IMG/VR virus record: IMGVR_UViG_3300042465_001373
Coordinates: 1 to 33,802 of that record
Length of the DNA: 33,802 bases
Source: a virus
Strand: one strand, 5' to 3'
This document shows, one piece after another, positions 1,940 to 27,110 of this stretch. Position numbers and translations under genes: made by a program. The notes below the pieces were generated by a model. That model did no database searches. It saw only the letters and a program-made list of their open reading frames with translations, and was not told where the DNA came from. The stretch's first letter is position 1; every line of letters begins with the position of its first letter.

Positions 1940-2352
1940 TGGCTTTTACCGGCAATTACACCTGTGACGTGTTCAAAACGGGCTTGTTGACTGGCTCGTT
2001 TAATTTTACTGGGGGGTCATTTTATATGGCTCTCTATACGAACGACGCCACACTCAACGCAAGTACGACTGCGTACACGACTATTGGTGAAGCTTCGGGT
2101 GGGTCATATAGTGCTCCCGGTCAACTCCTTGCTAACGCTTCTGTTGCGATAAACAACAACATCGCTTACTTGACCTTCGACAACCCAAGCTGGACCGGGT
2201 CAATCACCGCTCGTGGGGCGCTGATCTACAAAGCCGGTGACAACGGTGCTGTATGTGTTTTAGACTTTGGTGCAGACAAAACTTCCACTAATTCTTTTGT
2301 GGTTCAGTTCCCAGCGGCAACCAGCACATCTGCGATCATTAGGCTTTCATGA
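1939..2352 (+). CDS. Small structural protein, paralogue A
   Basis: The ATG overlaps the upstream stop as TGATG. The 137-residue product is rich in Ser, Thr, Ala and Gly and looks all-beta, with FYMALYTNDATLNASTTAYTT, a GEASGGSYSAPGQ turn and a closing GALIYKAG / VLDFG / FPAATSTSAIIRLS block. The protein encoded at 3285-3761 shares the same order of motifs (ALY, NASTTAY, GE/NEVSG-Y, LIYN, FGS, P-AxLRL), so the two are diverged paralogues. Similar proteins in phage genomes are annotated only as structural. It may decorate the virion. It overlaps the glycosyltransferase start by ATGA. Confidence 0.7.
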   Translation: MAFTGNYTCDVFKTGLLTGSFNFTGGSFYMALYTNDATLNASTTAYTTIGEASGGSYSAPGQLLANASVAINNNIAYLTFDNPSWTGSITARGALIYKAGDNGAVCVLDFGADKTSTNSFVVQFPAATSTSAIIRLS

Positions 2353-3062
2353 ACATACTTATTGCTACCCCGATGTACGGTGGTATGTGTACGGGCGAGT
2401 ACACACGGTCAATGCTTAATGTGTCGTCTGTTTTAGGTGCTGCAAACATCAAGCACTCTGCTGCTTTTGTGTACAACGATAGCCTGATTACAAGTGCTCG
2501 GAACAAGCTGGCGACGCTGTTCTTAAAGACGGACTCCACTCACCTGCTTTTTATTGACGCCGATGTTGCCTTTGAAGCTAAAGACATCGTTAGTATGGTT
2601 GTAGCTAACAAGCCCGTCATTGCCGGTATATACCCCAAAAAGCGTTTGAACTGGGCTCGGGTTGAGATGGCCGTTAAAGCGGGTGTCCCTGCTGATCAGT
2701 TAGAACATCACACGGGTGATTTGGTCATTCGGCTTACCGACGATGAGATGGAGCGTGAAGTCAAAGTCACTGACCCCGTCGAAGTTTGGGGGGCGGGTAC
2801 TGGTTTTATGTTGATCCAACGATCGGTGTTTGAGTCGCTTTACGACAAGGTTGACCACTATCAAGACGAAGATGGCTCGCCGTTGCACGAGTATTTTTTC
2901 CTGAAGAAAGACCCAAAACTAAACAAGCAGCTGACCGAAGACTACGCGTTTTGTCAGTTGTGCCGCGAAAACGGGATTAAAGTTTATGCTGCCCCGTGGG
3001 TTCGTTTGAGTCACACTGGGACGTATACTTTTACTGGTTCTGTTATCCCTACAACGGTTTAA
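2349..3062 (+). CDS. GT-A fold glycosyltransferase
   Basis: The 237-residue protein starts with the Rossmann-like strand MNILIATPMYGG. It has a YNDSLITSARN helix and the metal-binding DxD motif in LLFIDADV (D70, D72). Further on, EVWGAGTGFMLIQRS resembles the acceptor-site strand of family 2-like enzymes, and EDYAFCQLCRENG followed by a His in RLSHTG supplies the likely catalytic acid and metal ligand. It would transfer a sugar from a nucleotide-sugar donor. The acceptor is unknown: virion proteins, or host surface glycan to block superinfection. Its start overlaps the upstream gene by four bases, so it belongs to the late structural operon. The fold is confident; substrates are not readable. 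Confidence 0.85.
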   Translation: MNILIATPMYGGMCTGEYTRSMLNVSSVLGAANIKHSAAFVYNDSLITSARNKLATLFLKTDSTHLLFIDADVAFEAKDIVSMVVANKPVIAGIYPKKRLNWARVEMAVKAGVPADQLEHHTGDLVIRLTDDEMEREVKVTDPVEVWGAGTGFMLIQRSVFESLYDKVDHYQDEDGSPLHEYFFLKKDPKLNKQLTEDYAFCQLCRENGIKVYAAPWVRLSHTGTYTFTGSVIPTTV

Positions 3063-13037: not shown

Positions 13038-14372
13038 ATGACCTTCCACAACACCGCCAGCCAACTAGCCGCCCGAGGCAGAAACGGAGACTCCGTCCTT
13101 GTCCACATGTCAGGGGGAGAGCTCAAAAGTCTTCAGGATCTTGCGCTGGCTGCGGGCGGGTCGTTAACGATCAACCCAGATACGGGATTGCCGGAGGCAA
13201 GCTTCCTTAAAAAACTTCTGCCGACGATCCTCGGTGCGGGGCTATCTCTGATTCCGGGTGTCGGCCCTCTCATGGCTGCTGGGATTGTGGGTGGTGGTAC
13301 GGCTCTGGCTACGGGCGATCTCAGTAAAGGTCTGATGGCGGGTCTGGGCGCGTACGGTGGTGCAGGGTTGGCGGGTGGTCTGGCGGGTGCTGGGACGGCA
13401 GCTGCAGCTCAAGGGGCTGGGACTGCTGCTTCTTCGGCGGGTCTTTCTGCTGCTGACGCTGCCCTATCTGCTGCTGATCCTACCTTTGCTACCCTTGCAG
13501 CTAAAGACGCTGCGTTGGCCTCCCCGCTTTCCACTATGGGTCAAGGCCTTACTTCTATAGGCGCCTCCGGTGCCGCAGGTGAAGCTGCTCGTCAAGGGTT
13601 TATGAGTGGTGTCGGTGGGCTCGGTGGGTTGGCTAAATACGGATTGGCTGCAACATCTCCTTTCCTTGCCGGTGCTGGCGAGACTAAACAGCCCGAAATT
13701 AAGCCGACCCCAACCATGAATCGGTTGCGATATGAAGCTCAGCCTGTTACGCCTACCCCCACCCCTGATGTGCCGGGGTACGATGATCTTGGCAGGGATT
13801 TCGGTCGGCAACGTGCTTACTTTGATGGTCGCTATGTAGACACCGGCCGTAAGTTTGTACCGGGGGACTTTGGCACGGTTACTCCTATGCCGACTATGGC
13901 TAACGGAGGGATGTCCAGTTTTGATGGTATCGGCGGTAACGAGACTTATCCGCTTTCAAACATTCCGCAAGCTCAATATAAGCCCAGTATCCAAGACCCT
14001 CAGCAGGCCAACGTGCTGCGTAATACTCCGGTTGCTGAAGTAGATCCTTACACTGGAGAAGAGCGGTTTGCCTCTGGTGGTCTTTCTCACCTTGGGGGAT
14101 ACTCGGACGGCGGACGTATGTTGCGTGGGCCCGGAGATGGTGTGTCTGACTCTATCCCTGCGACAATCGGCGATAAACAGCCTGCTCGTTTGGCCGACGG
14201 AGAGTTCGTAGTACCTGCCCGCATCGTCTCTGAGATTGGTAACGGGTCGTCTGAAGCTGGCGCTCGTAAGCTCTACGCCATGATGGACAGGGTGCAGAAC
14301 GCCCGTAAAAAGTCTGTCGGTAAGGGTAAAGTGGCAGTCGACTCTAAAGCTGAAAGGCATCTGCCTGCATGA
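13038..14372 (+). CDS. Internal virion / membrane-active structural protein
   Basis: The 444-residue protein follows AAGGA. Residues 20-50 contain VLVHMSGGELKSLQDLALAAGG and then SLTINPDTGLPEA, a conserved phage start. Residues 55-130 are a Gly/Ala-rich hydrophobic stretch with likely membrane-inserting helices (LLPTILGAGLSLIPGVGPL, AAGIVGGG). The middle (about 215-360) is Pro/Gly rich and disordered. The C-terminal module (364-416) reads GPGDGVSDSIPATIG, QPARLADGEFVVPARIVSEI and AGARKLYAMMDRV, widespread in podovirus internal proteins. It probably takes part in DNA ejection. The next gene overlaps by ATGA. Confidence 0.65.
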   Translation: MTFHNTASQLAARGRNGDSVLVHMSGGELKSLQDLALAAGGSLTINPDTGLPEASFLKKLLPTILGAGLSLIPGVGPLMAAGIVGGGTALATGDLSKGLMAGLGAYGGAGLAGGLAGAGTAAAAQGAGTAASSAGLSAADAALSAADPTFATLAAKDAALASPLSTMGQGLTSIGASGAAGEAARQGFMSGVGGLGGLAKYGLAATSPFLAGAGETKQPEIKPTPTMNRLRYEAQPVTPTPTPDVPGYDDLGRDFGRQRAYFDGRYVDTGRKFVPGDFGTVTPMPTMANGGMSSFDGIGGNETYPLSNIPQAQYKPSIQDPQQANVLRNTPVAEVDPYTGEERFASGGLSHLGGYSDGGRMLRGPGDGVSDSIPATIGDKQPARLADGEFVVPARIVSEIGNGSSEAGARKLYAMMDRVQNARKKSVGKGKVAVDSKAERHLPA

Positions 14373-14824
14373 ATGCCCAAGGCAAACTTGAATGGTTTGG
14401 CGGTAACCAAGATGCCCTGAATATGTTCAGGGCGTTTGTATTTTTGTTGCACACTTGGGATGACTTGGTAGACAAAGATCAGGCAGTCCCTGAAGTAGAC
14501 GTAAATAATGCGTTTTTAACTGCACTTGTCTACTTGCCCGCAAACCCCTTTTATCGTGCCATACAAGATGCCATACTCCCTATGTGGATGGTTGTGGTGT
14601 CTTCTTATGAAACCGCTAACAAGTTTGAACGAGACAAAGACCCGCACGGTATTGAGATAGCGCATGGGTTGCGCTACGCAGCTGGGAACATCATGGCTTA
14701 TGCGGTTCACGTTTGTGTTGGCCCTGAGAAAGCTAGAGAGTATCTTCCAGAGATGTGGAAGACTGTATTTCATGAGCGGTTCGATGCGTACCGCAAGGAG
14801 CACTTAGATGCTGATCCGAAATAA
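14369..14824 (+). CDS. Conserved helical phage protein with Asp-rich motif
   Basis: The 151-residue protein is mostly helical with no export signal. It has FVFLLHTWDDLVDKD at residues 23-37, an Asp-rich patch (D31, D32, D35, D37). A second helix block contains GIEIAHGLRYAAGNIMAYAVHV. I recall related uncharacterised proteins between internal virion genes of aquatic podoviruses. The Asp-rich segment superficially resembles the DDxxD motif of isoprenoid synthases, but only one motif is visible and the protein is about half that family's usual size. It overlaps the previous gene by four bases and the next by 17. Confidence 0.65.
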   Translation: MNAQGKLEWFGGNQDALNMFRAFVFLLHTWDDLVDKDQAVPEVDVNNAFLTALVYLPANPFYRAIQDAILPMWMVVVSSYETANKFERDKDPHGIEIAHGLRYAAGNIMAYAVHVCVGPEKAREYLPEMWKTVFHERFDAYRKEHLDADPK

Positions 14825-17264
14825 ATTCAACGGGTACTCCACCGACGGCGTTCGTACTTATTATTTTGGTAGTGGTGGAGGTGGAGAGAGTAATCCTAGC
14901 CAAACCCAAACTCAGATTGCAGAACTCCCTGAGTGGGCGCGGGGGTACGCTCAGCAAACACTTGCTCAAGGCGAAGCTCTGGCCCAAAAGCCTTATGCTC
15001 GGTACACAGAACCTAGGTTTGCTGGGTTTTCTCCGCTTCAACTTCAAACGCAACAACGAATCGCAGGTATGGGTCCCGCCGGTCAGATCGGCGAAGCTTC
15101 AGATATCGCTAGTCTTGCAGGTGCTAAGGCTTTCCAAGCGGGTCAGTATGATCCGGGGCAGTTTTCTGGTGGTATGTTTACTCCCGGTGCTGCGGGGTTC
15201 TACATGTCCCCGTTCATGGAGCAAGCGATGGCTCCTCAGCTTCGGGAAGCCCAGCGAACATCTGACATTCTAGGTACGCAGCAGGCGGGTCAAGCGGTTC
15301 AGGCCGGTGCGTTTGGTGGTTCCCGTGCTGGTCTTCTTGAAGCTGAGAGGCAGCGAAATCTTGGTACTCAGTTAGGTGACATTCGCGCCCGTGGGTATCA
15401 GACTGCGTACGAACAAGCTGCTCAACAGTTCAATCAAGACATGCAGCGTCGGATGCAAGCCCAGCAATTGGGTGAACAGTCTCGGCAGTTTGGTGCAGGG
15501 CTTGGGATTCAGGGTCTTGGTACAGCTCTACAAGCCGCAAGCCAGTTGGGTCAGCTGGGTCAGCTTGGGTTTGGGCAGCAAAAAGACATCCTCGGTATGC
15601 AGAAGGAAGCCGGTGCCGAGCAGCAAGCGCTTCGCCAAAAAGGACTTGAGCAGTCTTATCAAGACTTTCTTGCTGAACAAAACTATCCGTACAAACAACT
15701 TGGTTTCATGTCTGATTTGATCCGAGGGCTACCCCTTGGGCAGCAGTCATCCCGGCAGATTTATGAAGCAGGTCCCACTCCTTTGCAGACTATTGGGTCC
15801 ATCGGGGCAGGGCTGTACGGCGCGAAGCAGTTGGGGATGTTTGGTAGTAAAGAAGGCGGCGTTGTCAGCTCGATGGCCGAGGGTGGCTCGGTTACTGACG
15901 AACGGTTTGTGGCCGGTGCGCTTGAAAAACTCTCAGATCAACAGCTTGCTCAAGCCGAGCAGGTTGCTATGGCTAGGGGTGACAGACAGCGGCTTGCGAT
16001 GATCGCTGAAGAAAAAGCTATCCGGGCCTCCGAGCGCCGTGGGCTGGCTGGTGCGTTCAATCAGATCCCGCAAGACCAACAGGAGCGGATGGCTCGTGGT
16101 GGAATCGTGGCTTTTGATGACGGCGGGGATGTGGATGAGTCGGCAGAACCGGTAGCTGCCCCTATGCCCGCTTTGCTTTCTCGTTACTACGGACAGCAGA
16201 TTGAAGGTTTGCAGGCCCCTGAAGCCCGTACACCTGAGCAACTGCAAGAGCGGATAAAGTCCCTGTCTGATCTTTACGGCCCCGGCATCACTAAGCAGTA
16301 CATGGACAAACTCGAAGCGGATCGTGCTGCGCTTGCGGGTCGGCGTGAAGAGAACAAAGGGCTGATCGCTCTTGCTGCTGCTCAAGCACTGTCCAGAGGC
16401 TCGGGGTTGCGTCAGGGTCTGGGCAACATGTTTGGTGCTATCGGTACCGAAGCGGGTCGGCTTAGTAAAGACGTAAGAGACTCAGAGCAGTTGATTAGAC
16501 GCTCCGAGATGGAGCTCGCTCGGGCGGAGCAGGCTCGTAAAGATGGACTTAACGACAAAGCCACACAGTTGGAACGTCAAGCGTACACCGACGCAGTTGC
16601 TGCTCATAACACCAAGCAGACTGCGCTCTACCGTCAACAACAGCTTGAGCAGGCTAAGGAGCTTGCTGCGGCTCGGGAACGAAAAGACTTGCTGCTTGAG
16701 GAAGAGAGAAGCAGACGGGCTGAAGCCACCGCTAAGACTGCGCACGAGAGGGCTGTGGAAGTTGCTAGGATTCAAGCGGAGAGGGATAGGACTACTACCG
16801 CTGATAGAGAAATAGATGTGCTCCAAGCCGACATTAAAGCTAGAAACTCAGAACTTTCGGATTCAGCTGCAAGGGCACAGGCGATTCGTGAGCGTCTAAG
16901 TATGATGGGTCGGGTTCCGGGTGATGTTCGAGCGGAACAGGTTGCTGACCAACTTAGAGCCGGGATCGAAAAAGACATCAATGCCCAAACCAGCCTTCTT
17001 AAAACCCGGCTAAGTACTACTAAAGATCCAAAAGTAAAAGCCGAATTACAAGCTGAAATCAATGCGATCGAAGAGAGAGAGCGCCGCAAGTTCCCGTCGC
17101 TGTATCCTAGCGGAGCTGCTCCGACTTCTGCTCCGGCTCCTAGTTCCGGTGCGCTACCAGTGCCTTCTAAAAGAGAAGATCTTAAGCAAGGACAAATTTA
17201 TAGCACCGCTAGAGGGCCAGCTACTTGGGATGGAGAAAAATTTAACCCAGTATCTACTAGGTAA
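14808..17264 (+). CDS. Large internal virion / ejection-type protein
   Basis: The ATG at 14808 has AAGGAG at 14795-14800, which decides the start despite a 17-base overlap. The 818-residue product begins with a Gly/Ser linker, then LPEWARGYAQQTLAQGEAL and YTEPRFAGFSPLQLQTQQ. Residues 110-330 are Gln/Gly rich with GAFGGSRAGLLEAERQRN and repeated GQLGQLG. A Gly-rich junction (EGGVVSSMAEGG, later MARGGIVAFDDGGD) leads to a long charged coiled coil, roughly 556-700. It ends with QGQIYSTARGPATWDGEKF. The architecture resembles podovirus core or ejection proteins; no catalytic motif was found. Confidence 0.65.
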   Translation: MLIRNKFNGYSTDGVRTYYFGSGGGGESNPSQTQTQIAELPEWARGYAQQTLAQGEALAQKPYARYTEPRFAGFSPLQLQTQQRIAGMGPAGQIGEASDIASLAGAKAFQAGQYDPGQFSGGMFTPGAAGFYMSPFMEQAMAPQLREAQRTSDILGTQQAGQAVQAGAFGGSRAGLLEAERQRNLGTQLGDIRARGYQTAYEQAAQQFNQDMQRRMQAQQLGEQSRQFGAGLGIQGLGTALQAASQLGQLGQLGFGQQKDILGMQKEAGAEQQALRQKGLEQSYQDFLAEQNYPYKQLGFMSDLIRGLPLGQQSSRQIYEAGPTPLQTIGSIGAGLYGAKQLGMFGSKEGGVVSSMAEGGSVTDERFVAGALEKLSDQQLAQAEQVAMARGDRQRLAMIAEEKAIRASERRGLAGAFNQIPQDQQERMARGGIVAFDDGGDVDESAEPVAAPMPALLSRYYGQQIEGLQAPEARTPEQLQERIKSLSDLYGPGITKQYMDKLEADRAALAGRREENKGLIALAAAQALSRGSGLRQGLGNMFGAIGTEAGRLSKDVRDSEQLIRRSEMELARAEQARKDGLNDKATQLERQAYTDAVAAHNTKQTALYRQQQLEQAKELAAARERKDLLLEEERSRRAEATAKTAHERAVEVARIQAERDRTTTADREIDVLQADIKARNSELSDSAARAQAIRERLSMMGRVPGDVRAEQVADQLRAGIEKDINAQTSLLKTRLSTTKDPKVKAELQAEINAIEERERRKFPSLYPSGAAPTSAPAPSSGALPVPSKREDLKQGQIYSTARGPATWDGEKFNPVSTR

Positions 17265-17273
17265 AGGTTAGCG

Positions 17274-20200
17274 ATGAGCACTTCCTTTACTTTTGAAGAA
17301 GCCCTGCAGCCAGCACAAGCCCCCAAAGAAACTTCTTTTAGTTATGAAGAAGCTTTGCAGTCGGCGCAACCAACCTCCTTTACCTTTGAAGACGCTTTAG
17401 ACGCCCAACAAAAACAAGAAGCCGCTCAGCAAGGTGTGTTGCGCTCTGCTGCAGACGTACCCCTAAAAGCTGCGGGTGCGTTTACAGGGGTTGTTCGAGC
17501 GGTTGCCGATATGTTTGGTGCGGACAATCCTGTATCCAAGCAGCTACGGGGGGCCGAAGACTGGATCGAGCAGTTCTATAGCGCTCAGTCTAAACAGGAC
17601 TCTAAAGAGATTGCCCGCCTTATGGACGAGGCAAAAGACAAAGGAGTCTGGGAGCAAGTTAAAGCCGCAGGGCAAGCGTTTGCTACGGCCCCGATTGATT
17701 TCGCTGCTATGGGTCTGGGCTCTGCTGCGCCTTTCATTATTGCTTCACTTGGCGCTTCGGTGTTTGGCGCACCCGCCGCACTTCTTACAACACTTGGTCT
17801 TGGTGCTGCTTCGGGTACGGGTGCTGTCAAGGGTGCTATCTACGATGCGGTTAAAGAAGAGCTTAAGAAAACCAACATGCCCGCCGATGAGATCGAGAAG
17901 CGGGCTGTTCTGGCTCAACAGTACAACGGCAAAAACCTAGATGTAATTTTAGGTGGTACTGGTCTTGGCTTAGTTACATCTCGCATGGGTGTTGAAAAAG
18001 CTGCTCTTAACTCTGCAGTTGCCCGAGTACTTGCTAAAAAAGCAGAAGCCGAAGCAGCAGAAACCGCTGCTAGGGAAGCCGCACGAGCGGCTACTAAAAC
18101 CGCTGCTGAACGAGGTGCTGTACGACAAGCGGGCGTAGTTGCGGGTACAGAAGCAGCTACAGAGTTCCCTCAAGAAGCTTATGAGTCTGCGATCGCCGGG
18201 AACATTGCGCGTCAACGTGAGGGATCTGACGTACCTACTTTTCAGGGCGCTGTTGGTGCTGGTACGTTGGGTGCCCTTACTGCTGGCCCTGTTGGTGCGG
18301 GCTTCGGTGCTCGTGAAGCGGTTGTGGCTCGGCAAGAACAAGAAAGGCTTAACCGTCTCGACCAGATCAATAAGACTGTCAACGTAGCGCCTCCTGCGCC
18401 TGATGCTACGCCCGATGAGAAAGTGTCGGCGCTTACTGAGCAGTACCAGAACTTGATGCCTGCGGATATCGCCGAGTCGCTCGCCCGTAGGATGGTTGAG
18501 GATGAACAGCGTCGTGCAGAAGAAGCGGCTGAGGTGGGGGTCGCCGTCCCTACAGACATTAAAGTTGACCCGGAAAGGGTAGCTCAAATAGAAGACGATT
18601 TAATAGCTGATGGCATCACTCCTGAGGCTGCTCGTGCCGAGGCTATCGCACAAGCTCGTGATGAAGCATATTACGACTATCTCTACGAGCAAGAGGAGCA
18701 AAGACGTGCTGGAGAACCTGTCACCCCACCAAGTGGAGAAGGCGTTCGAGTGGCTGGAGGACCCGAGCCCGAGTCCGCCGCCGGAGGACCTCCTGTCGTT
18801 GAGCCAGCTGGAGTGGTTCGTACTGAGGAAGATGCTGGACTCCCTGTGGGAGGAGAAAAAGCAGAGCCCGTTGCAGTAACCCCAACCGAAGGAGCCCCCA
18901 GTGGCACTGAAGCCCCTCAAGCCGTCGAAGCAAAAGAAGAAAGACCTGCGGTACCTGCAGAAGGACCAACTGCAGTTGAACCCAAGAAACCCGAAGAACC
19001 CGCTAAACCCCAAAAACCCCTTGGGCCGATCCAGCTTGCCAAGAAGCTAGCGAATGACGTAGCTGCAGAAGCAGCTACAGGTGAACAACGAGTAACTTCA
19101 ATAGCGGCTAAGCGCGAAGAATTAGCTAACCTTCCTGAAAGTCAGCGCAAGGTCGCTGAGATATTTTTCAATAAAGAGTTAACTAAGCTTGGCGCTGTCA
19201 AAGATATAAAAGATCCTGAGTTTGCTGAGGTACCTCAAGCCCCAGCTTTGTATCGTGCGTCTACCGAGAAAGACCGGTATCCGGGTAAGTTTTGGACGTC
19301 TATCAAAGAACTCGCCGAGCGATATGTTAAGAAATCTACAGCAGGTGAACAACGTGCTGTCCAAGAGGCGGCTGAACTGCCTAAGAAATCTTTGAATGTC
19401 ACTAAACTTGCAGCCGCAGATAAATCTTTACGCGATGAGATGCTTGCTGACTTTGAAGGGTGGATTGAGAAGAACAGCACCAAAGATCCTGAAGACTCTC
19501 GGTTATATGACGTTTTCGCCGAAGGTGAAACGGATTTTGCCTATCCAACCGTAGACGATGTTCGATACCTAAAAAGCAAAGGATACGACTCGGTATTTTT
19601 TGCTGAAGAAGGCGGTGAGCCTGCGAACACATGGTTCGTGTTCGATAAAAAAATCAAAGCTACTGGGTTGGGTGGGCGTCCCAAACTAACTCCTGAGCAG
19701 CAACAAGCTCGGCAAGAAGAGCGAAACAGGAAACGCAGAGAAAAGCGGGCTGCTGCGGAGAAGAAGCGCGGTCGGCCAGCAAAGCCCGAAGAAGAGAAGA
19801 AAGCTACTGCCGAGGCTAAACGGGAAACGGATAAGAACCGAGTTCGAGATTCTCGTAAGCTTGAGAGCGTCAAGAAGGACATCGCAGGCTATCCCGGCTT
19901 AGACAACCGTACTTCGCGTGAAGTGCTCATCACTGATGCACTGACGGACCTCTATGCGCTGCAGAAAACCGCTGCGTCCACGCCTCTGCGGAAAGAAGCA
20001 AAGGAGCTGTTCAACTCCTTCCTAACCTCTATCACTGGGGTTGAGAAGGTTCACGCCGACCGGGTTGTTGCCAACCTAAAAGCCGCTCCTCTCTCGTCTG
20101 TCTTTAAGTCTCTCTCAAAAGTCACTAAAGCAGATCCTGCGCTTAACGATATCGACAACGGTTACGCCGCAGCTACGTACATATACAAGAATGCCAAGAA

Positions 20201-23200
20201 CGCCTTCCAAAAAGTAATGGCTTGGCGTATCAGGAACGAACTAAAGAAGTCAAACGCTAAGATAAAAGTTCTTCAGTTGGGTGAAGAAGAACCCGACATC
20301 CTTAAAGATCCGTACGTTCAAGCTCGGTGGAAAGAAAGCAGAGGTTTGTACATTCCTTCCACGAATACTGTGTATGTGCGCGGTACTTCTTTTGGTAATC
20401 AGCAAGGCGTCAACAACGTCACCCTGCTGCATGAACTCCTCCATGCAGCCACCGCGAGTAAGCTTCGTACTGGCAGGATCGAGCTTAAGCGCTCTATTCG
20501 TACGCTGTCTAAGCTAACCCCAGAGGCGCAGTTTGCATCTGATCTTAGCCGCTTGATGAACCATGTCGAGTCTGAGTTCCGACTGCAGAAAAAGCTTGGC
20601 GTGCTCGACCCCACGGTGCAGAAGTTTGTAGAAAGCAAACTGACGCTTACCAAATCAAATCAGCTAGACAACCTCGTCTTTAATGACCTTGATGAGTTTT
20701 TAGCTTACGGGTTGTCAGATCCAGTCTTTCAAGCGTATCTGCAAACATTACCGGGTACTACAGCCAACGAAAACGCTTTCTCTTGGTTCTTAGATATTCT
20801 TCGTAAGCTGTTTGGTATCCCTCGTGGGGAGATGACAGCGCTCTTTGAGCTGGCCCATATCGCTGATCAAATAATCACGGAGCAGCCTTCTTCACGCGAC
20901 ATCAAAGCTACAGTGCAGAAGATCCCCGAGTCTGAGCGAGACATCACGGATGCTGAGCTGGAGCTATTTGCCCAAGCTATGGAGGATGTACCTTCTACTC
21001 CAGAAGCAGAATCAGTACAAAAGAAAGCCGCAGCTAAGTCAAAGTCCACTAATGAGACGCTGGCTAAGGTCGAGCGCTCTACCGTTGACCAACCTAGGTT
21101 CTGGAACGGCGTAGAGAGGCTGGTCAAAGATCGTGATCCTGATCTGTTTGTCGACGGACTCTCGGCTAAAGCCGCTTCGTTTCAGGGTGGTACGTTGCGC
21201 CAGCTTCTGCCGACTTTACAGACTGAGACGCTGGTCGATTGGGCTAATCGCCTCGGCTTGACGAACATCAAGCGGTCCTTCGACATCATCAAGGACATGA
21301 ACGCCCTGCGCACCAAGATGACTGCGTCGGCGGCACCTATAAGCGAGAGGCTTCTCAAGCTGCAAAGAACCAACCCGGACATGTACGAAGCTCTGGGTAA
21401 GGTCATGCACTATTCAACGCTCAGGGGAAAAGATCCGTCGGTCGAAGCAGACTATAAGTCGAGTCCTGCACTAGCCCAGTTGTGGGATGCGCTAGACCCT
21501 GAAGCTGCTCGACTCTACAAAGAAGTGCGTGACTACTACAAGGCATCGCATGATCTCTACTACCTCACGCTGATCGATCGTGTCGAACAGTCTGGGGCTC
21601 CGGGGTTTGCCGACGATGCAGCCACACCCAAGGGTAAGCTGATTGCTTCTATCCGCAAGATGTACGAGAAGTCCAATAAGGTCCGACCGTACTTCCCCCT
21701 CGTGCGCTATGGTGAGTTCTGGGTGCGGCTCGGTAAAGGCAAGACCGGCAAGTTCTACATGTTTGAGTCGCAGGCCGAGAAAGAACTCTTCATCAAGCAG
21801 TGGTTCCGTAAGCAGAAGGAAGCCAATCCTGACGTAACGCTAGCGGATCTTTACGACGGTGGTGACATCGAAGATGGCAACAAGATTAGGGATGCGCGTA
21901 AAGATGTAGCGCAGACCAGCATGTTGCTCAAAGAGATGTTCGAGCTGATCGACACCGCTAAACAAACGAGCGGTGCAGTGGTCGATGACTTTGGCACTGA
22001 GGTAAGAGACCGCGTAAGTTTTGATATCGATAAGCTCAAGGATGATGTTTATCAGCTAGTTCTGCAGACACTGCCCACAGAAAGTTTTCGTCGCCGATTC
22101 ATCCACAGGCAGGGTAAAGAGGGCTTCTCTAAGGACATCTCTAGAAACTTCGCCACGGTGTCGAGCGCCACTGCAAACCAGATCGCTCGTATCAAGTACG
22201 CACCAGAAGCTATTCGTGCAGTAGACGCAGCCAAAGATGCTCTGAAAGGTAACCCCGATCAGGCCAAGCTCAATGAGTTTGTGGCTGAGATGCGAGCCCG
22301 TGTAGAAGCGGAAGCATCCCCTGATCCTGAGAACACGCTCGGCAACCAAGTAGCTAACTTCGCTAACAAAGCGGCGTTCCTCTACATGATGACGAACGTC
22401 AAGACTGCGGTTGCTCAGTTCTCGGCGTTGCCTGTCTTCTCGGCTCCGGTTCTTGCGTCTAAACACGGTGTGCTAAAGACTGCCAAGGCTTTCGGTAAGT
22501 TCCTGCCGGTATGGAATAGCTTCGGTGTGCGTAGCACTGCACGAGACGGAACTACCTCGTTCGTAGCACCTACAGTTGCTGAGTCCACGCAGGTCAAGCT
22601 GAACCCTGAAGAACGCCGAGCGGCTCAGTACATGATCGATCGCGGGCTGACAGAAACCACGCTTGCCTACGATCTCGGCAACCGCAAGAAGATGCCCACT
22701 GAGGTTCAGAACTCTGCGCCTAGGCGAGTCATCAACACCGTCACTAACATCATGACGGGGCTCTTTCATAGCGTCGAGCGTATCAACCGTGAAATCACAT
22801 TCATGGCGGCGTTCCGGCTGGCTAGGGATGCAAACCCGGATATGCCTTTTGAGCAAGTGGTAAAGCTCGCCGAGCAGGACACCTATACCGCGCTGGGTAA
22901 CTTTGCTACGATCAACCGCCCGCGAGGAGTCGGTGCCACTGCCGAAGGGGATGTGCTTCTCAATGCTCACAAGCCACTAGGTCGGGCGATCCTGCAGTTC
23001 AAGATGTTCCCGGCGTTTGTGACTACCTACTTCGTGCGTAACTTCTACAGGATGCTCGGGCCTGAGTACACGAAGCAAGAACGCAAGGAAGCAGCGACTC
23101 AGTTCTTCGGCACCCTCTTCATGTCTCTCGGCCTCGCTGGTGTCATGGGCGTACCGGGCTTCTCGCTTGCGATGGGTCTGCTCTCCGGCTTGCGCAAACT

Positions 23201-24026
23201 GCAGATGGATGAGGACGATGAAGATCCGCTTGAGATGCGTGATCTGGAGCTTTGGTTCCGCAATGTTTGGCTCCCCCAGACCTTTGGTGATGTGAAGGTC
23301 GGAGACAAGTCTCTCGCCGAGTTGCTCGACCGGGGTGTGATTGCTGCACTTACGGGCTACGACATCTCTAGCAGCTTGTCGCTCAACAACATGTGGTTCC
23401 CCGAGTTGAAAGAACAGCCTACAGCACAGGCAGAGATGCAGGATTACGCGATCTCATTGCTTGGTCCGTTTGCTTCGCTAACCATTAATCAGATCCCCGC
23501 TGCCATCGACAAGTTCAACCAAGGCAAAGTGATTCAAGGGATCGAGGGTCTGCTGCCTGCCATGATGCGAGCACCTCTAACGTCTTACCGGTTATCCCAA
23601 GAAGGTGCTACTACGGTAACCGGTGCGCAGATCAAGGCGGCTGACGAGTTCACGACCGGACAGTTGATTGCTCAGGCTATGGGGTTCTCGACCGAGGGGC
23701 TCGTTGCTCAGCGGGAGACCATGTTCAAAGCAAACTCTCTCAAGCTTAAGGTTCAGTTTGAGCGCCGTAACTTGCTTGATCGGCTCGGCACAGACTTCCG
23801 AGGTGCTGAGGATCTTGGTCCTACACTCGACAAGATCATGGCGTTCAACCGTAAGAATTGGTTCGACCCGATAGATGGCAGTACGATTTCAGACTCTCTT
23901 AAGAATCGTATGAAGCGAGCCCTAGAGACTGAACGCGGGTTGCAGATTGAGCCTAAGTACTATCCGCAGCTTCGTGCTTTGTTCGGCCCTTCGATCGAGA
24001 AGCTGGAGCGCGAAGCCGCCAAATAA
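17274..24026 (+). CDS. Giant polyvalent protein: ART-like, HExxH metallopeptidase, LPD38-like C-terminus
   Basis: This 2250-residue protein begins with three copies of SF[ST][FY]E[ED]AL (residues 4-11, 21-28, 35-42). Hydrophobic Gly/Ala segments near 140-190 and 315-345 could contact membranes. A disordered acidic/Pro region (about 400-600) precedes an ADP-ribosyltransferase-like domain (about 645-797) with LYRAS (R661), KFWTS (673-676), LKSKGYDSVFF and TWFVFDKKIK (786-795). A basic stretch carries an AT-hook-like RGRP (832-835). HELLH at 1053-1057 with a downstream DEFLAYGLSDPVFQ (E1141) fits a gluzincin-type metallopeptidase. The helical C-terminal third has NKAAFLYMMTNVKTAVAQ, SVERINREITFMAAF, ILQFKMFPAFVTTYFVRNFY and a hydrophobic helix near 1943-1973, resembling LPD38-type polyvalent proteins. 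It is probably injected with the DNA. Confidence 0.75.
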   Translation: MSTSFTFEEALQPAQAPKETSFSYEEALQSAQPTSFTFEDALDAQQKQEAAQQGVLRSAADVPLKAAGAFTGVVRAVADMFGADNPVSKQLRGAEDWIEQFYSAQSKQDSKEIARLMDEAKDKGVWEQVKAAGQAFATAPIDFAAMGLGSAAPFIIASLGASVFGAPAALLTTLGLGAASGTGAVKGAIYDAVKEELKKTNMPADEIEKRAVLAQQYNGKNLDVILGGTGLGLVTSRMGVEKAALNSAVARVLAKKAEAEAAETAAREAARAATKTAAERGAVRQAGVVAGTEAATEFPQEAYESAIAGNIARQREGSDVPTFQGAVGAGTLGALTAGPVGAGFGAREAVVARQEQERLNRLDQINKTVNVAPPAPDATPDEKVSALTEQYQNLMPADIAESLARRMVEDEQRRAEEAAEVGVAVPTDIKVDPERVAQIEDDLIADGITPEAARAEAIAQARDEAYYDYLYEQEEQRRAGEPVTPPSGEGVRVAGGPEPESAAGGPPVVEPAGVVRTEEDAGLPVGGEKAEPVAVTPTEGAPSGTEAPQAVEAKEERPAVPAEGPTAVEPKKPEEPAKPQKPLGPIQLAKKLANDVAAEAATGEQRVTSIAAKREELANLPESQRKVAEIFFNKELTKLGAVKDIKDPEFAEVPQAPALYRASTEKDRYPGKFWTSIKELAERYVKKSTAGEQRAVQEAAELPKKSLNVTKLAAADKSLRDEMLADFEGWIEKNSTKDPEDSRLYDVFAEGETDFAYPTVDDVRYLKSKGYDSVFFAEEGGEPANTWFVFDKKIKATGLGGRPKLTPEQQQARQEERNRKRREKRAAAEKKRGRPAKPEEEKKATAEAKRETDKNRVRDSRKLESVKKDIAGYPGLDNRTSREVLITDALTDLYALQKTAASTPLRKEAKELFNSFLTSITGVEKVHADRVVANLKAAPLSSVFKSLSKVTKADPALNDIDNGYAAATYIYKNAKNAFQKVMAWRIRNELKKSNAKIKVLQLGEEEPDILKDPYVQARWKESRGLYIPSTNTVYVRGTSFGNQQGVNNVTLLHELLHAATASKLRTGRIELKRSIRTLSKLTPEAQFASDLSRLMNHVESEFRLQKKLGVLDPTVQKFVESKLTLTKSNQLDNLVFNDLDEFLAYGLSDPVFQAYLQTLPGTTANENAFSWFLDILRKLFGIPRGEMTALFELAHIADQIITEQPSSRDIKATVQKIPESERDITDAELELFAQAMEDVPSTPEAESVQKKAAAKSKSTNETLAKVERSTVDQPRFWNGVERLVKDRDPDLFVDGLSAKAASFQGGTLRQLLPTLQTETLVDWANRLGLTNIKRSFDIIKDMNALRTKMTASAAPISERLLKLQRTNPDMYEALGKVMHYSTLRGKDPSVEADYKSSPALAQLWDALDPEAARLYKEVRDYYKASHDLYYLTLIDRVEQSGAPGFADDAATPKGKLIASIRKMYEKSNKVRPYFPLVRYGEFWVRLGKGKTGKFYMFESQAEKELFIKQWFRKQKEANPDVTLADLYDGGDIEDGNKIRDARKDVAQTSMLLKEMFELIDTAKQTSGAVVDDFGTEVRDRVSFDIDKLKDDVYQLVLQTLPTESFRRRFIHRQGKEGFSKDISRNFATVSSATANQIARIKYAPEAIRAVDAAKDALKGNPDQAKLNEFVAEMRARVEAEASPDPENTLGNQVANFANKAAFLYMMTNVKTAVAQFSALPVFSAPVLASKHGVLKTAKAFGKFLPVWNSFGVRSTARDGTTSFVAPTVAESTQVKLNPEERRAAQYMIDRGLTETTLAYDLGNRKKMPTEVQNSAPRRVINTVTNIMTGLFHSVERINREITFMAAFRLARDANPDMPFEQVVKLAEQDTYTALGNFATINRPRGVGATAEGDVLLNAHKPLGRAILQFKMFPAFVTTYFVRNFYRMLGPEYTKQERKEAATQFFGTLFMSLGLAGVMGVPGFSLAMGLLSGLRKLQMDEDDEDPLEMRDLELWFRNVWLPQTFGDVKVGDKSLAELLDRGVIAALTGYDISSSLSLNNMWFPELKEQPTAQAEMQDYAISLLGPFASLTINQIPAAIDKFNQGKVIQGIEGLLPAMMRAPLTSYRLSQEGATTVTGAQIKAADEFTTGQLIAQAMGFSTEGLVAQRETMFKANSLKLKVQFERRNLLDRLGTDFRGAEDLGPTLDKIMAFNRKNWFDPIDGSTISDSLKNRMKRALETERGLQIEPKYYPQLRALFGPSIEKLEREAAK

Positions 24027-24106: not shown

Positions 24107-24301
24107 TCAAACCCTCCAGACTCGCAAGCCCTTCACTCCTTCCTCAATCACTACCTTCATCTCTACTTCGATCTCCAGCCGCTGCATCACACGCAGTATC
24201 TCTTTCTTAGCGGCTTTGTGGTCTAAACAGGGTACGAAAAAAGAGTACCCCTTGTGATACTTAGACCAATCAATTTGGTACGTCACTGACTCGATCTTCA
24301 T
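24107..24301 (-). CDS. Small conserved phage protein (64 aa)
   Basis: The product begins MKIESVTYQIDWSKYHKG, continues SFFVPCLDHKAAKKEI and ends in VVIEEGVKGLRVWRV. Alternating strands and a helix suggest a compact alpha/beta fold. I recognise the pattern, MKIE-VTYQVDW...FFVPCLD...VIE-G-KGLR-WRV, as a widespread small gene in phage replication modules, without known function. It overlaps the end of the primase-helicase gene by 32 bases. It is the last gene before the terminator. Confidence 0.75.
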   Translation of the reverse strand: MKIESVTYQIDWSKYHKGYSFFVPCLDHKAAKKEILRVMQRLEIEVEMKVVIEEGVKGLRVWRV

Positions 24302-27110
24302 CTGGTCTGATGTAGTTGTCTAGTTGGATCAAATCAAAGTGAGTTGCGTCAAACTTGATAGCTCTAACCGGTGGGGACACGACCTTCATACCCCGGCTCA
24401 GCCGCTTGCTGCACGACTCTACATACACCCCAAGCTCACCTAGCGTCTTTAGCGTATCTCGGTAATTGATCTGCCGACTGACACAATACTTCTTGAACGG
24501 TGCTGCTGCGATGTAGAGGGCTTTCGTATCTGGCTCAAACCGAATGAGCAGCTCACCTTTAGGCTCGGCGAGCGGTAGTGGGGCCAGACTGTTACGTGCA
24601 TCGACTGCTTCGTTCACCACCAGCGAATTGTTCAGGTAGATGTTGATGAACTCACCCAGTATGGTGACGGGCGAAGTCTCCGGCGGCTTAACCTCTTCGC
24701 GCATCTCGCCGAGCATCTTCAGCATCCAGTCATAGATGCGCTTCATGTCGTAGTCATGCAGAGCCAAGTTTTTGGCAATCAACCCGCCTGTGATGATGCA
24801 GGCGCACACACCCGACCAGAACCGCTCACGGCTTGTGAACTGCGCCTCTTTATCAATCCTAGCTTGTACCTTTGCAAGCAGTCCTTTGGCATCTTCAAGG
24901 TTGTTGATCAACCACTGAGCATACGGCTCGCCAGCATGACCAAAGTTTTCAAACAGCTGATGGTCGAACATGGCTTTGCCGAGCGCAACGTCAATGATGT
25001 TGTTCGGTTCGATGCGGTACTCCAGTAGGCGCATCATCTCGCCATCGGGGCTGTCCTTAGCATTGCCGAGCTTCTCGTAAAAAGATGCGTTAGACGAGCA
25101 CAAGGTGATGCCTTGCCATGAGGTGTTGTTGTTCCTCATCTCGTTGCTGTGCGTCTTCATGCGGTTCTTGCCTCGACCTTGGCTGATGCTATAAGCCAGA
25201 TCAGAGAACTCTTGTGCCGTAGTGTTCGTGATCTCGTCGATGGTGTTGGCTAGATTGTTCATCACACCAAGCATGTGCATTTTGGTGTTCATCGTATCTT
25301 TCCAGATCGACCCGAGCTTCTTCGGGTGCCCGATGACACTGTTGCATACGTATAGCGTCGTAGACTTACCTGATCCTGAGCGCGGGTAGATGACGTTGAC
25401 GATCGCACCCTCTAGGCCTGTGAACCTAAGTAGGGGGGAGCCAAACGAAACCAACGCAGCAAACGCATGAGGCTCAAGCCCCGGTGCGCTGTACATGTTG
25501 AACACTTCCTTCCACTTCTCGAAAGAGCCTTGCGGGTGGATGTGCGCAACTACAGACTTCGTTATTGTTGACGGAGGGCTGTAAAACACACCGTCTTTAG
25601 TGATCTCTCGATCACCCAAAATAAACTTGTTGTCCTTTTCAGTCCAACCAAATTGCGTCCTCATGATCTCTGCCTTCTTTTGATACTGGAGGTTTTTGAT
25701 AAACGCCATCACGTAGTAGATGAATACTTCCAACTGCTTGGGGGTCAGTATCACCCCGTGATGCGCGATGCTCTCTCTAAGTTTTTCCTTCACAACAATC
25801 GCCGTCATTGGTACAGAGAACTCTTTCACTCCGTCCCTTGGCAGATGCAGCCGGAACAAAGCCACCTCCCCAAGCTCGTCGTGCTTCATTCTCTTAACTA
25901 CGTACAAGTCATGCTCGTACACCAGTGACGGTTCATCTTCTTCGTCCACAGACTTTTTGTAGATCCCTCCGTTCTTGCCCCTGAAGAAAGGAAACGGGTA
26001 CTCTGGTATTTGATACTCAACTTCTTCCTGCTCACCATCAGCACCTTCCTCCTGCACCACCACCGTATCGTCGTCGGCCTCCATGACCTCAGCGCCCAAC
26101 AAGATCGGCGATTTGATGTGGCCTTTGTGCGGGCAGTTGATGCAGCCAGTCGGGTTGAGTTTCTCAAAGGTAGCGCAGGTGTAAGGACCGCCCTTCGCTA
26201 CGATGTAGTCAAGCTTCTTCTCTACCTCTGCCTCGTTATAGCTTGGGTACTTGTCCGACATCTTGTGAGCTGCAGTTCTGCCGTCAACACAGAAAGCGGT
26301 GATCGATAGTGCAGCCCGCCACAGTGGTTCCTCAAGCGTCTCCTGATTCTCGTAACAGTGAATGAGCTGAGCACACCCATCACCGTTCGCCGAGCGGATC
26401 ATGATCTTCTTAAAACTCTTAGTGCGGTTGCCCAGTAGGGCTTCCATCATCGGACTCATCCCCCGAGGGACGAAGTCGGGTGCAGGTTCACGCGGGGGTG
26501 CAGACCCCAGTAACGCTTGCAGTTCCTCGTACTTGATACGGTTTGAGTTTTCGCTAATAACGCGAACTTCTACTTGCGTACCAAATTTGAAATTGAACGT
26601 GCCCGGTATGCGCAGAACCCTTGATGCTTCAAACACTGCCGGGTCTACGATCAGACCATGTTCATTGCATAGCTCTCTCAGTCTTTTGGCTAACGGCTCC
26701 CATTGATGTCGGCGAAGTACTTCTTCAATAAGCCAGTAGATGTGCAGACCATAGCCCGAGTCCACGATGACGGGCTTGGGTAGGTTTGTCTTTCCGCAGA
26801 ACTCACGCAGAGCCAATAGCCCTGCTTCCTGATCGGCATACCCCTTCTTCTCTTCAACTTTGACCGCACCGCAATCAAGATCAATCCACAGAGACCTGAA
26901 GTACTCGGCGTTCTCTTGGGTTCGGTTTTCCTGCTCGCCAAACTTAGCGCAGGCAAAAAATGCGTTCTTTCCTTGAGAGACAAAAGTCTTTGCTATGTTG
27001 TCCAGTTCTTCACGGGTGTTAACTAACCTCTGGTCTGGGTACTTGCTTATCCCTATGACGCAATAGCGTCCTTCTGCCGGTAGTACGGCGTCGAGTAGGT
27101 CAAAGCTCAT
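24270..27110 (-). CDS. Primase-helicase fusion (AEP primase plus DUF927-like helicase)
   Basis: The 946-residue protein joins two activities. Residues 1-200 resemble an archaeo-eukaryotic primase: LWIDLDCG supplies the metal-binding D77 and D79, SGYGLHIYW supplies His123, and VDPAVFEASRVLRIPGT is the third conserved segment. A Cys/His cluster (C312, C323, C326, H328) precedes an acidic linker at 343-365. Residues 480-800 form a P-loop ATPase of DUF927 or superfamily III type, with PRSGSGKST at 576-584 and NTIDEIT (D625, E626) as Walker B. It would unwind DNA and lay primers for PolA. Its ATG overlaps the regulator stop as TAATG, with only a weak ribosome site. Confidence 0.85.
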   Translation of the reverse strand: MSFDLLDAVLPAEGRYCVIGISKYPDQRLVNTREELDNIAKTFVSQGKNAFFACAKFGEQENRTQENAEYFRSLWIDLDCGAVKVEEKKGYADQEAGLLALREFCGKTNLPKPVIVDSGYGLHIYWLIEEVLRRHQWEPLAKRLRELCNEHGLIVDPAVFEASRVLRIPGTFNFKFGTQVEVRVISENSNRIKYEELQALLGSAPPREPAPDFVPRGMSPMMEALLGNRTKSFKKIMIRSANGDGCAQLIHCYENQETLEEPLWRAALSITAFCVDGRTAAHKMSDKYPSYNEAEVEKKLDYIVAKGGPYTCATFEKLNPTGCINCPHKGHIKSPILLGAEVMEADDDTVVVQEEGADGEQEEVEYQIPEYPFPFFRGKNGGIYKKSVDEEDEPSLVYEHDLYVVKRMKHDELGEVALFRLHLPRDGVKEFSVPMTAIVVKEKLRESIAHHGVILTPKQLEVFIYYVMAFIKNLQYQKKAEIMRTQFGWTEKDNKFILGDREITKDGVFYSPPSTITKSVVAHIHPQGSFEKWKEVFNMYSAPGLEPHAFAALVSFGSPLLRFTGLEGAIVNVIYPRSGSGKSTTLYVCNSVIGHPKKLGSIWKDTMNTKMHMLGVMNNLANTIDEITNTTAQEFSDLAYSISQGRGKNRMKTHSNEMRNNNTSWQGITLCSSNASFYEKLGNAKDSPDGEMMRLLEYRIEPNNIIDVALGKAMFDHQLFENFGHAGEPYAQWLINNLEDAKGLLAKVQARIDKEAQFTSRERFWSGVCACIITGGLIAKNLALHDYDMKRIYDWMLKMLGEMREEVKPPETSPVTILGEFINIYLNNSLVVNEAVDARNSLAPLPLAEPKGELLIRFEPDTKALYIAAAPFKKYCVSRQINYRDTLKTLGELGVYVESCSKRLSRGMKVVSPPVRAIKFDATHFDLIQLDNYIRPDEDRVSDVPN

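What the first reader, a model, noticed from the sequence alone, without database searches (positions are those of the whole stretch)
17274..24026. Giant polyvalent ejection-type protein with ART-like and metallopeptidase signatures
Seen: one uninterrupted 2250-codon gene holding an ADP-ribosyltransferase-like stretch (R661 in LYRAS, FWTS at 673-676, VFDKKIK near 789-795), a downstream HELLH (1053-1057) with a possible third ligand E1141, and a membrane-rich helical end. Known: polyvalent phage proteins combine such domains and are thought to be injected to act on host targets. Inferred: this one could modify host proteins and cleave peptide bonds on entry, as well as help DNA cross the membrane.
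Basis: partly seen in the sequence, partly recalled or inferred. Interest (0 to 1): 0.75.

Follow-up and report, generated by a model that had tools for sequence, protein, structure and literature searches.

The report
Giant phage ejection protein with cargo
This is a very large internal virion protein of an uncultured short-tailed phage, built like the injected RNA polymerase of phage N4 but carrying a probable protein-modifying (ADP-ribosyltransferase-like) domain in place of the polymerase; it adds a member to a known class of injected multidomain phage proteins.

Summary
One intact 2250-codon gene (17274-24026, +) has every motif at the stated residues. The metallopeptidase call is right. 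Residues 958-1220 form a zincin homologous to domain C1 of the phage N4 virion RNA polymerase (profile-profile probability 97%; structure match Z 10.0) and to the phiKMV-type internal virion protein 9sfn. H1053/E1054/H1057 are kept in 45/45, and E1141 in 46/46, distinct relatives fetched without using those motifs. The ART call is probable, not proven. Residues 645-800 are the only part of the protein that resembles the polyvalent ART family (PF18760), with R661 where that family has His. The AF2 model is poor, no Pfam hit exists, and only two other phages carry this cassette. The C-terminal module (LPD39 plus 'PLxRFG/DarB-like') resembles T7/phiKMV internal core proteins and is shared by more than 50 uncultured phages. 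The 'membrane-rich helical end' is overstated: two weak hydrophobic stretches. Best reading: a 'polyvalent' ejection protein with a conserved zincin-helical chassis and a swappable cargo slot that here holds a divergent ART. Cleavage of host proteins is not supported over self-processing or a purely structural role. New member of a known kind (Iyer et al. 2017).

The parts
17274..24026 (+). Whole gene, 2250 aa giant ejection-type polyvalent protein
17391..18458 (+). N-terminal module, residues 40-395, with a weak hydrophobic stretch at 143-173; shared by a subset of relatives
18471..19193 (+). Low-complexity linker, residues 400-640
19206..19667 (+). ART-like cassette, residues 645-798 (LYRAS R661; FWTS 673-676; GYDSVFF; VFDKKIK)
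19254..19256 (+). Codon of R661, aligned with the His of the YHGT motif of ART-PolyVal
19671..19928 (+). Lys/Arg/Glu-rich linker, residues 800-885
19935..20144 (+). Conserved pre-zincin segment, residues 888-957
20145..20933 (+). Zincin-like metallopeptidase domain, residues 958-1220, homologous to N4 vRNAP C1 and phiKMV-type gp37
20430..20444 (+). HELLH motif, residues 1053-1057
20694..20696 (+). Codon of E1141, third zinc ligand in (D)EFLAYG
21261..21587 (+). LPD39 (PF18858), residues 1330-1438
21687..23960 (+). C-terminal helical module (NF032893 tail-700/PLxRFG; phrog_10089 'DarB-like'), residues 1472-2229
14808..17264 (+). Upstream neighbour, DNA ejection protein (phrog_4287); a homologue lies upstream in 40 of 56 relatives' loci
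24270..27110 (-). Convergent primase/helicase gene just downstream; homologue in 53 of 56 relatives' loci

Best explanation
The gene encodes an internal virion (ejection) protein of a short-tailed phage, packaged in the head and expelled into the host with the DNA. It is built on the same plan as phage N4's injected RNA polymerase: an N-terminal region with a hydrophobic patch, a flexible linker, a cargo enzyme, a zincin domain, then a long helical C-terminal module of the internal-core type. Where N4 has an RNA polymerase, this phage has a divergent ADP-ribosyltransferase-like domain. The likely course is as follows. The chassis is packaged and threads through the tail. It helps form or line the trans-envelope channel and places the ART-like cargo at or inside the inner membrane, where it ADP-ribosylates a host macromolecule early in infection. 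The zincin most likely processes the protein itself to free the cargo, or is a structural/regulatory element. Shown: zincin fold and conserved ligands, chassis conservation, genomic position, rarity and exchange of the cargo. Inferred: packaging, injection, catalysis by either domain, self-processing, host target.
For: Zincin: N4 vRNAP residues 2124-2359 match the model at Z 10.0 over 188 residues; profile-profile 97% to N4 and 98% to LKD16 gp37; 9sfn_G internal virion protein at E 2.5e-6 by single sequence and 4e-18 by profile; catalytic residues invariant in an unbiased set. Chassis: LPD39 E 4.9e-10, NF032893 E 5.7e-94, phrog_10089 E 2e-64, 56 distinct giants with the same module order. Ejection type: predicted-structure matches to 'internal core protein' of Pseudomonas phage Ab05 (E 6e-12), Ralstonia phage RSB3 (E 1.6e-10) and 'internal virion protein D' of Roseobacter phage CRP-5 (E 5.4e-8). 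Location: directly after a DNA ejection protein gene, last large gene of the late block, convergent with replication genes, as in N4. ART: hhalign score 29.3 against 34 ART-PolyVal sequences, best of 100 column shuffles 17.5, reversed 13.3; of 53 tiles of the protein, 641-801 scores highest (30.3) and non-overlapping tiles reach at most about 16. The cassette is conserved (55-62% identity) as well as the chassis (50-54%) while its flanking linkers are not alignable. The slot holds recognisable ART-PolyVal-like domains (YHGT/YHGS) in other relatives (L067, L029, L080, L164).
Against: The AF2 model of the ART region has mean pLDDT 52, with no Foldseek match; an ART (2hw2) is only second in a weak list at Z 2.8. 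PF18760 does not match the window. Only two other phages carry the cassette. R661 replaces the family's His and F673 its Tyr, so activity could be lost. The paper on the N4 homologue reports no degradation of vRNAP (PMC12633501), which speaks against obligatory self-cleavage. Homology of the C-terminal helical module to N4 C2 was not shown (score 31.9 against 19.3 reversed). The upstream genes show no detectable homology to N4 gp51/gp52. No proteomics.
Confidence: 0.6

Rival explanations
1. Structural ejection protein only: the zincin is a non-catalytic scaffold/regulatory domain (as may be the case for N4 C1) and the ART-like cassette is a decayed or binding-only domain; the protein only builds the DNA channel.
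For: N4 vRNAP with the homologous HExxH domain shows no degradation, and its C-terminal part acts as an autoinhibitor (PMC12633501). The ART-like domain has R and F where the family has H and Y and is missing in most relatives.
Against: All three zinc ligands and the general base are invariant in every distinct relative examined, which a scaffold alone does not require. The cassette is as conserved as the chassis in the three phages that have it.
Confidence: 0.22
2. One reading: the zincin is an effector that cleaves host proteins on entry, in addition to ART modification of host proteins.
For: A true zincin site. Iyer et al. 2017 (PMC5512222) list host proteolysis as one possibility.
Against: The zincin is the fixed part of the chassis and is hardly ever missing among more than 50 relatives with different cargo slots. 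That fits a role in handling the protein itself better than a host-specific effector.
Confidence: 0.13
3. Antirestriction protein (DarB-like), as the annotation of relatives says: protects entering DNA from restriction.
For: phrog_10089 'DarB-like antirestriction' E 2e-64 and the annotation of phages hit by tblastn.
Against: The match covers only the C-terminal module 1458-2228. No methylase or helicase domain of the kind that goes with the DarB name was found in this protein. The name is transferred from the shared C-terminal end.
Confidence: 0.03
4. The ART-like reading is a coincidence of short motifs; residues 645-800 are an unrelated small domain on an otherwise true ejection/zincin protein.
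For: No Pfam hit, poor AF2 model, no structural match.
Against: Best-scoring segment of the whole protein against the ART-PolyVal profile, well above shuffles; the forced full alignment pairs LYRAS-YHGT, GKFWTS-G-YFT, GYDS-GYDG and VFDKKIKA-vaFs.tqvKS in order; the same slot holds ART-PolyVal-like domains in relatives.
Confidence: 0.3

Closest known systems
Polyvalent proteins (Iyer et al. 2017, PMC5512222)
   Same: Large phage multidomain protein combining a zincin metallopeptidase, an ART-like domain and an LPD (LPD39), near virion genes; proposed to be injected.
   Different: The ART-like domain is below Pfam detection and has Arg where the class has His; the specific order N-module/ART/zincin/LPD39/PLxRFG in this phage group is not described in the parts of that paper read here.
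Phage N4 virion RNA polymerase gp50 (PMC12633501; PDB 9pnr, 9pnq)
   Same: Homologous zincin (C1) domain, same order of N-terminal region, linker, cargo, zincin, long helical C-terminal part; last gene of the late block next to other ejection proteins, convergent with the replication genes.
   Different: No RNA polymerase domain; cargo slot holds the ART-like cassette; homology of the C-terminal helical part and of the neighbouring ejection genes to N4 not shown.
phiKMV-type internal virion protein gp37 (LKD16; PDB 9sfn chain G) and T7 gp16-type core proteins
   Same: Homologous zincin (98% profile-profile with LKD16 gp37); predicted-structure match of the long model to internal core proteins; third of three consecutive virion genes of rising size.
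   Different: LKD16 gp37 is 1337 aa, far shorter; the matched part is the zincin by sequence, the rest by predicted structure only; the endolysin domain of its annotation was not found here.
ART-PolyVal (PF18760)
   Same: Same ordered motifs at profile-profile level.
   Different: Not reached by the Pfam model; His to R661, Tyr to F673.
T4 Alt (virion-packaged ART)
   Same: Proposed working analogy: an ART carried in the virion that modifies host proteins at entry.
   Different: Alt belongs to the R-S-E Alt/VIP2 clade and is a separate protein (PMC5512222); no homology shown.

Membership tests
Zincin-like metallopeptidase of polyvalent/vRNAP proteins | HExxH plus downstream Glu ligand, conserved | tested here: met
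   H1053/E1054/H1057 in 45/45 and E1141 in 46/46 distinct relatives fetched without those motifs; 55/55 and 56/56 in the motif-fetched set
Zincin-like metallopeptidase of polyvalent/vRNAP proteins | Core fold: N-terminal helix, three-stranded sheet, HExxH helix, Glu-bearing helix | tested here: met
   AF2 pLDDT about 80-90 over most of the domain with that order of elements; N4 C1 match Z 10.0, 188 aligned
Zincin-like metallopeptidase of polyvalent/vRNAP proteins | Peptidase activity | not testable with these tools
   needs biochemistry
Polyvalent proteins (Iyer et al. 2017) | LPD or other polyvalent-associated domain | tested here: met
   LPD39 E 4.9e-10, above curated cut-off
Polyvalent proteins (Iyer et al. 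2017) | Two or more domains of disparate activity in one polypeptide | tested here: inconclusive
   zincin well supported; ART-like domain probable only
Polyvalent proteins (Iyer et al. 2017) | Delivered into the host with the DNA | not testable with these tools
   only indirect support: position next to an ejection gene and structural match to core proteins
ART-PolyVal (PF18760) | Match to the Pfam model at its curated cut-off | tested here: not met
   no match for residues 601-810 or the window at E up to 10
ART-PolyVal (PF18760) | His in strand 1 and Tyr in strand 2 of the H-Y-D site | tested here: not met
   R661 and F673 occupy these columns in the forced full alignment
ART-PolyVal (PF18760) | Distant profile relationship | tested here: met
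   score 29.3 against at most 17.5 for 100 shuffles; top tile 641-801
ART fold in general | ART fold in a confident structure | tested here: inconclusive
   mean pLDDT 52; no Foldseek match; rifampin ART at Z 2.8, weak
N4-like virion RNA polymerase | T7-like RNA polymerase domain | tested here: not met
   no polymerase family in the Pfam scan
T7 gp16 / phiKMV gp37 internal core proteins | Structural similarity of the long C-terminal part | tested here: inconclusive
   BFVD matches to internal core proteins at E 6e-12 to 5e-8, but with low TM-scores (0.22-0.37); sequence homology shown for the zincin only
T7 gp16 / phiKMV gp37 internal core proteins | Presence inside the virion | not testable with these tools
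   needs virion proteomics
DarB antirestriction | Methylase/helicase domains | tested here: not met
   no such domain in P0001

The most novel reading that the evidence does not exclude
The cassette is a new ART clade with an Arg-Phe site in the HYD-type fold, carried by an N4-vRNAP-like ejection chassis whose cargo slot is swapped between phages (ART-R, ART-H, SLT and mostly unknown cargos), so that the chassis is a general phage protein-injection vehicle released by its own zincin.
Probability: 0.25. Interest if true: 0.65.

Novelty: new member of a known kind. Interest (0 to 1): 0.42.

Why it matters
It ties three things together in one abundant group of uncultured phages: polyvalent proteins, the N4 injected RNA polymerase and phiKMV core proteins share a zincin, and the region upstream of it is exchanged between phages. 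If the slot really carries cargo into cells, its many unknown occupants (no Pfam hit in about 48 of 53) are candidate early host-takeover enzymes, and the chassis would be a natural vehicle for protein delivery into bacteria.

Tried and rejected
Whole protein and single domains as queries in viral contigs returned only a 99.98% identical copy; the zincin alignment with Parlo and 9sfn opened the family. The ART alignment found only the same three contigs; plasmids gave no match and phages only chance-level matches. ART-PolyVal Pfam model on the window: none. AF2 of the ART region with three sequences: low confidence; Foldseek none, VIA weak. PDB Foldseek of the 1200-residue model: nothing significant; glutamate-transporter rows in the VIA list (Z 5-6) are taken as chance helical matches. 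Homology of the C-terminal module to N4 C2 (an apparent E 6e-9 for the full query appears to be the zincin score realigned elsewhere, so it was discarded) and of the neighbours to N4 gp51/gp52: not found. Prophage forms in bacterial genomes: one weak relative in about 85,000 species, so no host could be named. 'Antirestriction' rejected as a name taken from the shared C-terminal end. Selection bias of the HELLH conservation (the fetch pattern contained it) was removed by a second retrieval with C-terminal patterns.

Full report
OBSERVATION. The gene at 17274-24026 (+) is one open frame of 2250 codons beginning with ATG. It starts 9 bases after a gene of the 'DNA ejection protein' family (phrog_4287, E 8.9e-17), is the last large gene of the forward (virion) block, and faces a reverse block with primase/helicase, SNF2 helicase, PDDEXK nuclease and DNA polymerase. 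The record is a 33.8-kb viral contig with no larger assembly held.

DOMAINS FOUND BY FAMILY SEARCH. Pfam: LPD39 at 1330-1438 (E 4.9e-10). NCBIfam: NF032893 'tail-700, PLxRFG domain-containing protein' at 1472-2229 (E 5.7e-94). PHROGs: phrog_10089 'DarB-like antirestriction' over 1458-2228 (E 2e-64). tblastn in isolated phages hits only this C-terminal part, about 25% identity, mostly in about 60-kb phages and in Microcystis phage Mel-JY34, which has the same convergent gene order.

ZINCIN. The region around HELLH matches PDB 9sfn chain G, 'internal virion protein' (E 2.5e-6); the 9sfn segment is identical to LKD16 gp37 of the phiKMV group, 1337 aa. It also matches phrog_2206 'virion RNA polymerase' (E 5.5e-9). 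Serratia phage Parlo carries the same motifs (HELVH, DELLAYG). An alignment of the three opened a family of more than 300 viral contigs. Among 56 distinct giants the ligands are invariant wherever the column is covered. Because the fetching pattern contained the motif, I repeated the retrieval with C-terminal patterns only: 57 of 58 proteins long enough have the zincin, with H/E/H in 45/45 and E1141 in 46/46 distinct domains. AF2 on residues 958-2157 with 46 sequences gives pLDDT about 80-90 over most of the domain, with the order helix, strand, strand, strand, HExxH helix, Glu helix. The best structural match is N4 vRNAP 2124-2359 at Z 10.0, the C1 domain that the N4 paper describes as carrying an HExxH motif as found in zincin metalloproteases (PMC12633501). 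Profile-profile comparison agrees: 97% to N4, 98% to LKD16 gp37.

ART-LIKE CASSETTE. Two other contigs (L007, L022) have residues 645-800 at 55-62% identity with R661, PGKFWT, GYDS and NTWFVFDK all kept; the flanking linkers do not align. Pfam ART-PolyVal does not match. Against a profile of 34 ART-PolyVal sequences the cassette scores 29.3 by hhalign, while 100 column shuffles reach at most 17.5 and the reversed alignment 13.3. In a scan of 53 tiles of the whole protein, tile 641-801 scores highest, and tiles that do not overlap the cassette stay at about 16 or less. The confident part of that alignment is GYDS...VFD; the forced full alignment pairs LYRAS with YHGT and GKFWTS with G-YFT, so R661 takes the place of the His and F673 that of the Tyr of the H-Y-D site given for polyvalent ARTs (PMC5512222). 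AF2 with three sequences is not confident (pLDDT 52), and structure searches are uninformative. I take an ART-like fold as about 65-70% likely and catalytic activity as about even.

CARGO SLOT. The chassis (pre-zincin, zincin, LPD39, C-terminal module) is collinear in 56 distinct giants, with the ejection-protein gene upstream in 40 loci and the convergent primase/helicase in 53. The region before the zincin varies: the R-type cassette in one clade (window, L007, L022; support 100), ART-PolyVal-like domains with YHGT/YHGS in L067, L029, L080 and L164, an SLT transglycosylase in Parlo, and no recognised domain in about 48 of 53. A second site between zincin and LPD39 holds an ATPase plus a YgjP-like peptidase segment in eight, one of them also with an ART-PolyVal.

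EJECTION TYPE. The long model matches, in the viral structure library, other LPD proteins first, then 'internal core protein' of phiKMV-like and Ralstonia phages and 'internal virion protein D' of a Roseobacter phage; TM-scores are low, so this is support, not proof. Hydropathy gives two weak membrane-type regions only. The family is almost absent from bacterial genomes, as expected of non-integrating phages.

MECHANISM. The order N-module, linker, cargo, zincin, long helical C-terminal part is that of N4 vRNAP (NTD, linker, RNAP, C1, C2; PMC12633501). The most economical reading is an injected chassis in which the polymerase is replaced by an ART-like enzyme. Iyer et al. proposed that polyvalent zincins process the proteins themselves and that the ARTs modify host proteins in the manner of T4 Alt (PMC5512222). 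The fixed presence of the zincin next to changing cargo fits self-processing or a structural role better than a host-directed protease; the absence of degradation in N4 warns against assuming cleavage. Packaging, injection, catalysis and target remain inferred.

NOVELTY. The class, the zincin and ARTs in such proteins are known. New here are this member, the R-for-H version of the ART motif, and the view of the slot as exchangeable across this phage group. The link of N4 and polyvalent zincins was already made by Iyer et al.; its extension to the phiKMV-type protein is from this work. I file it as a new member of a known kind.

Noticed in passing
L071, L066, L009, L010, L052, L077, L084, L083 (between zincin and LPD39): About 840-980 aa insertion with an HATPase_c/Hsp90-type ATPase (8 members) and a second HELAH, YgjP-like peptidase segment.
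   Followed up: partly
L022 giant, residues about 775-860 (DNA from about 7020): Directly after the R-type ART cassette a further stretch YVYHAVRNDADIGDIVANGLK...SFD...ILVF looks like another ART-like motif set; no Pfam hit.
   Followed up: no
window 14369-14824: 151-aa gene overlapping both neighbours, with LLHTWDDLVDKD; a homologue was seen in only 2 of 56 relatives' loci and no family matches.
   Followed up: partly
window 13038-14372: Late gene with unusually high local identity (often 75-90%) to its counterparts in relatives whose giant proteins are only about 30% identical.
   Followed up: no
53 cargo slots (alignment A4): About 48 of 53 regions upstream of the zincin have no Pfam match; candidate unknown injected domains.
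   Followed up: no
L004 (Serratia phage Parlo) giant: Has two zincins: one of the window type (residue 1195) and one of another type just before LPD39 (residue 2557), plus an N-terminal SLT domain.
   Followed up: partly
window 2349-3062: Weak glycosyltransferase-like match (Anp1 / Glyco_transf_21) in the structural gene block.
   Followed up: no
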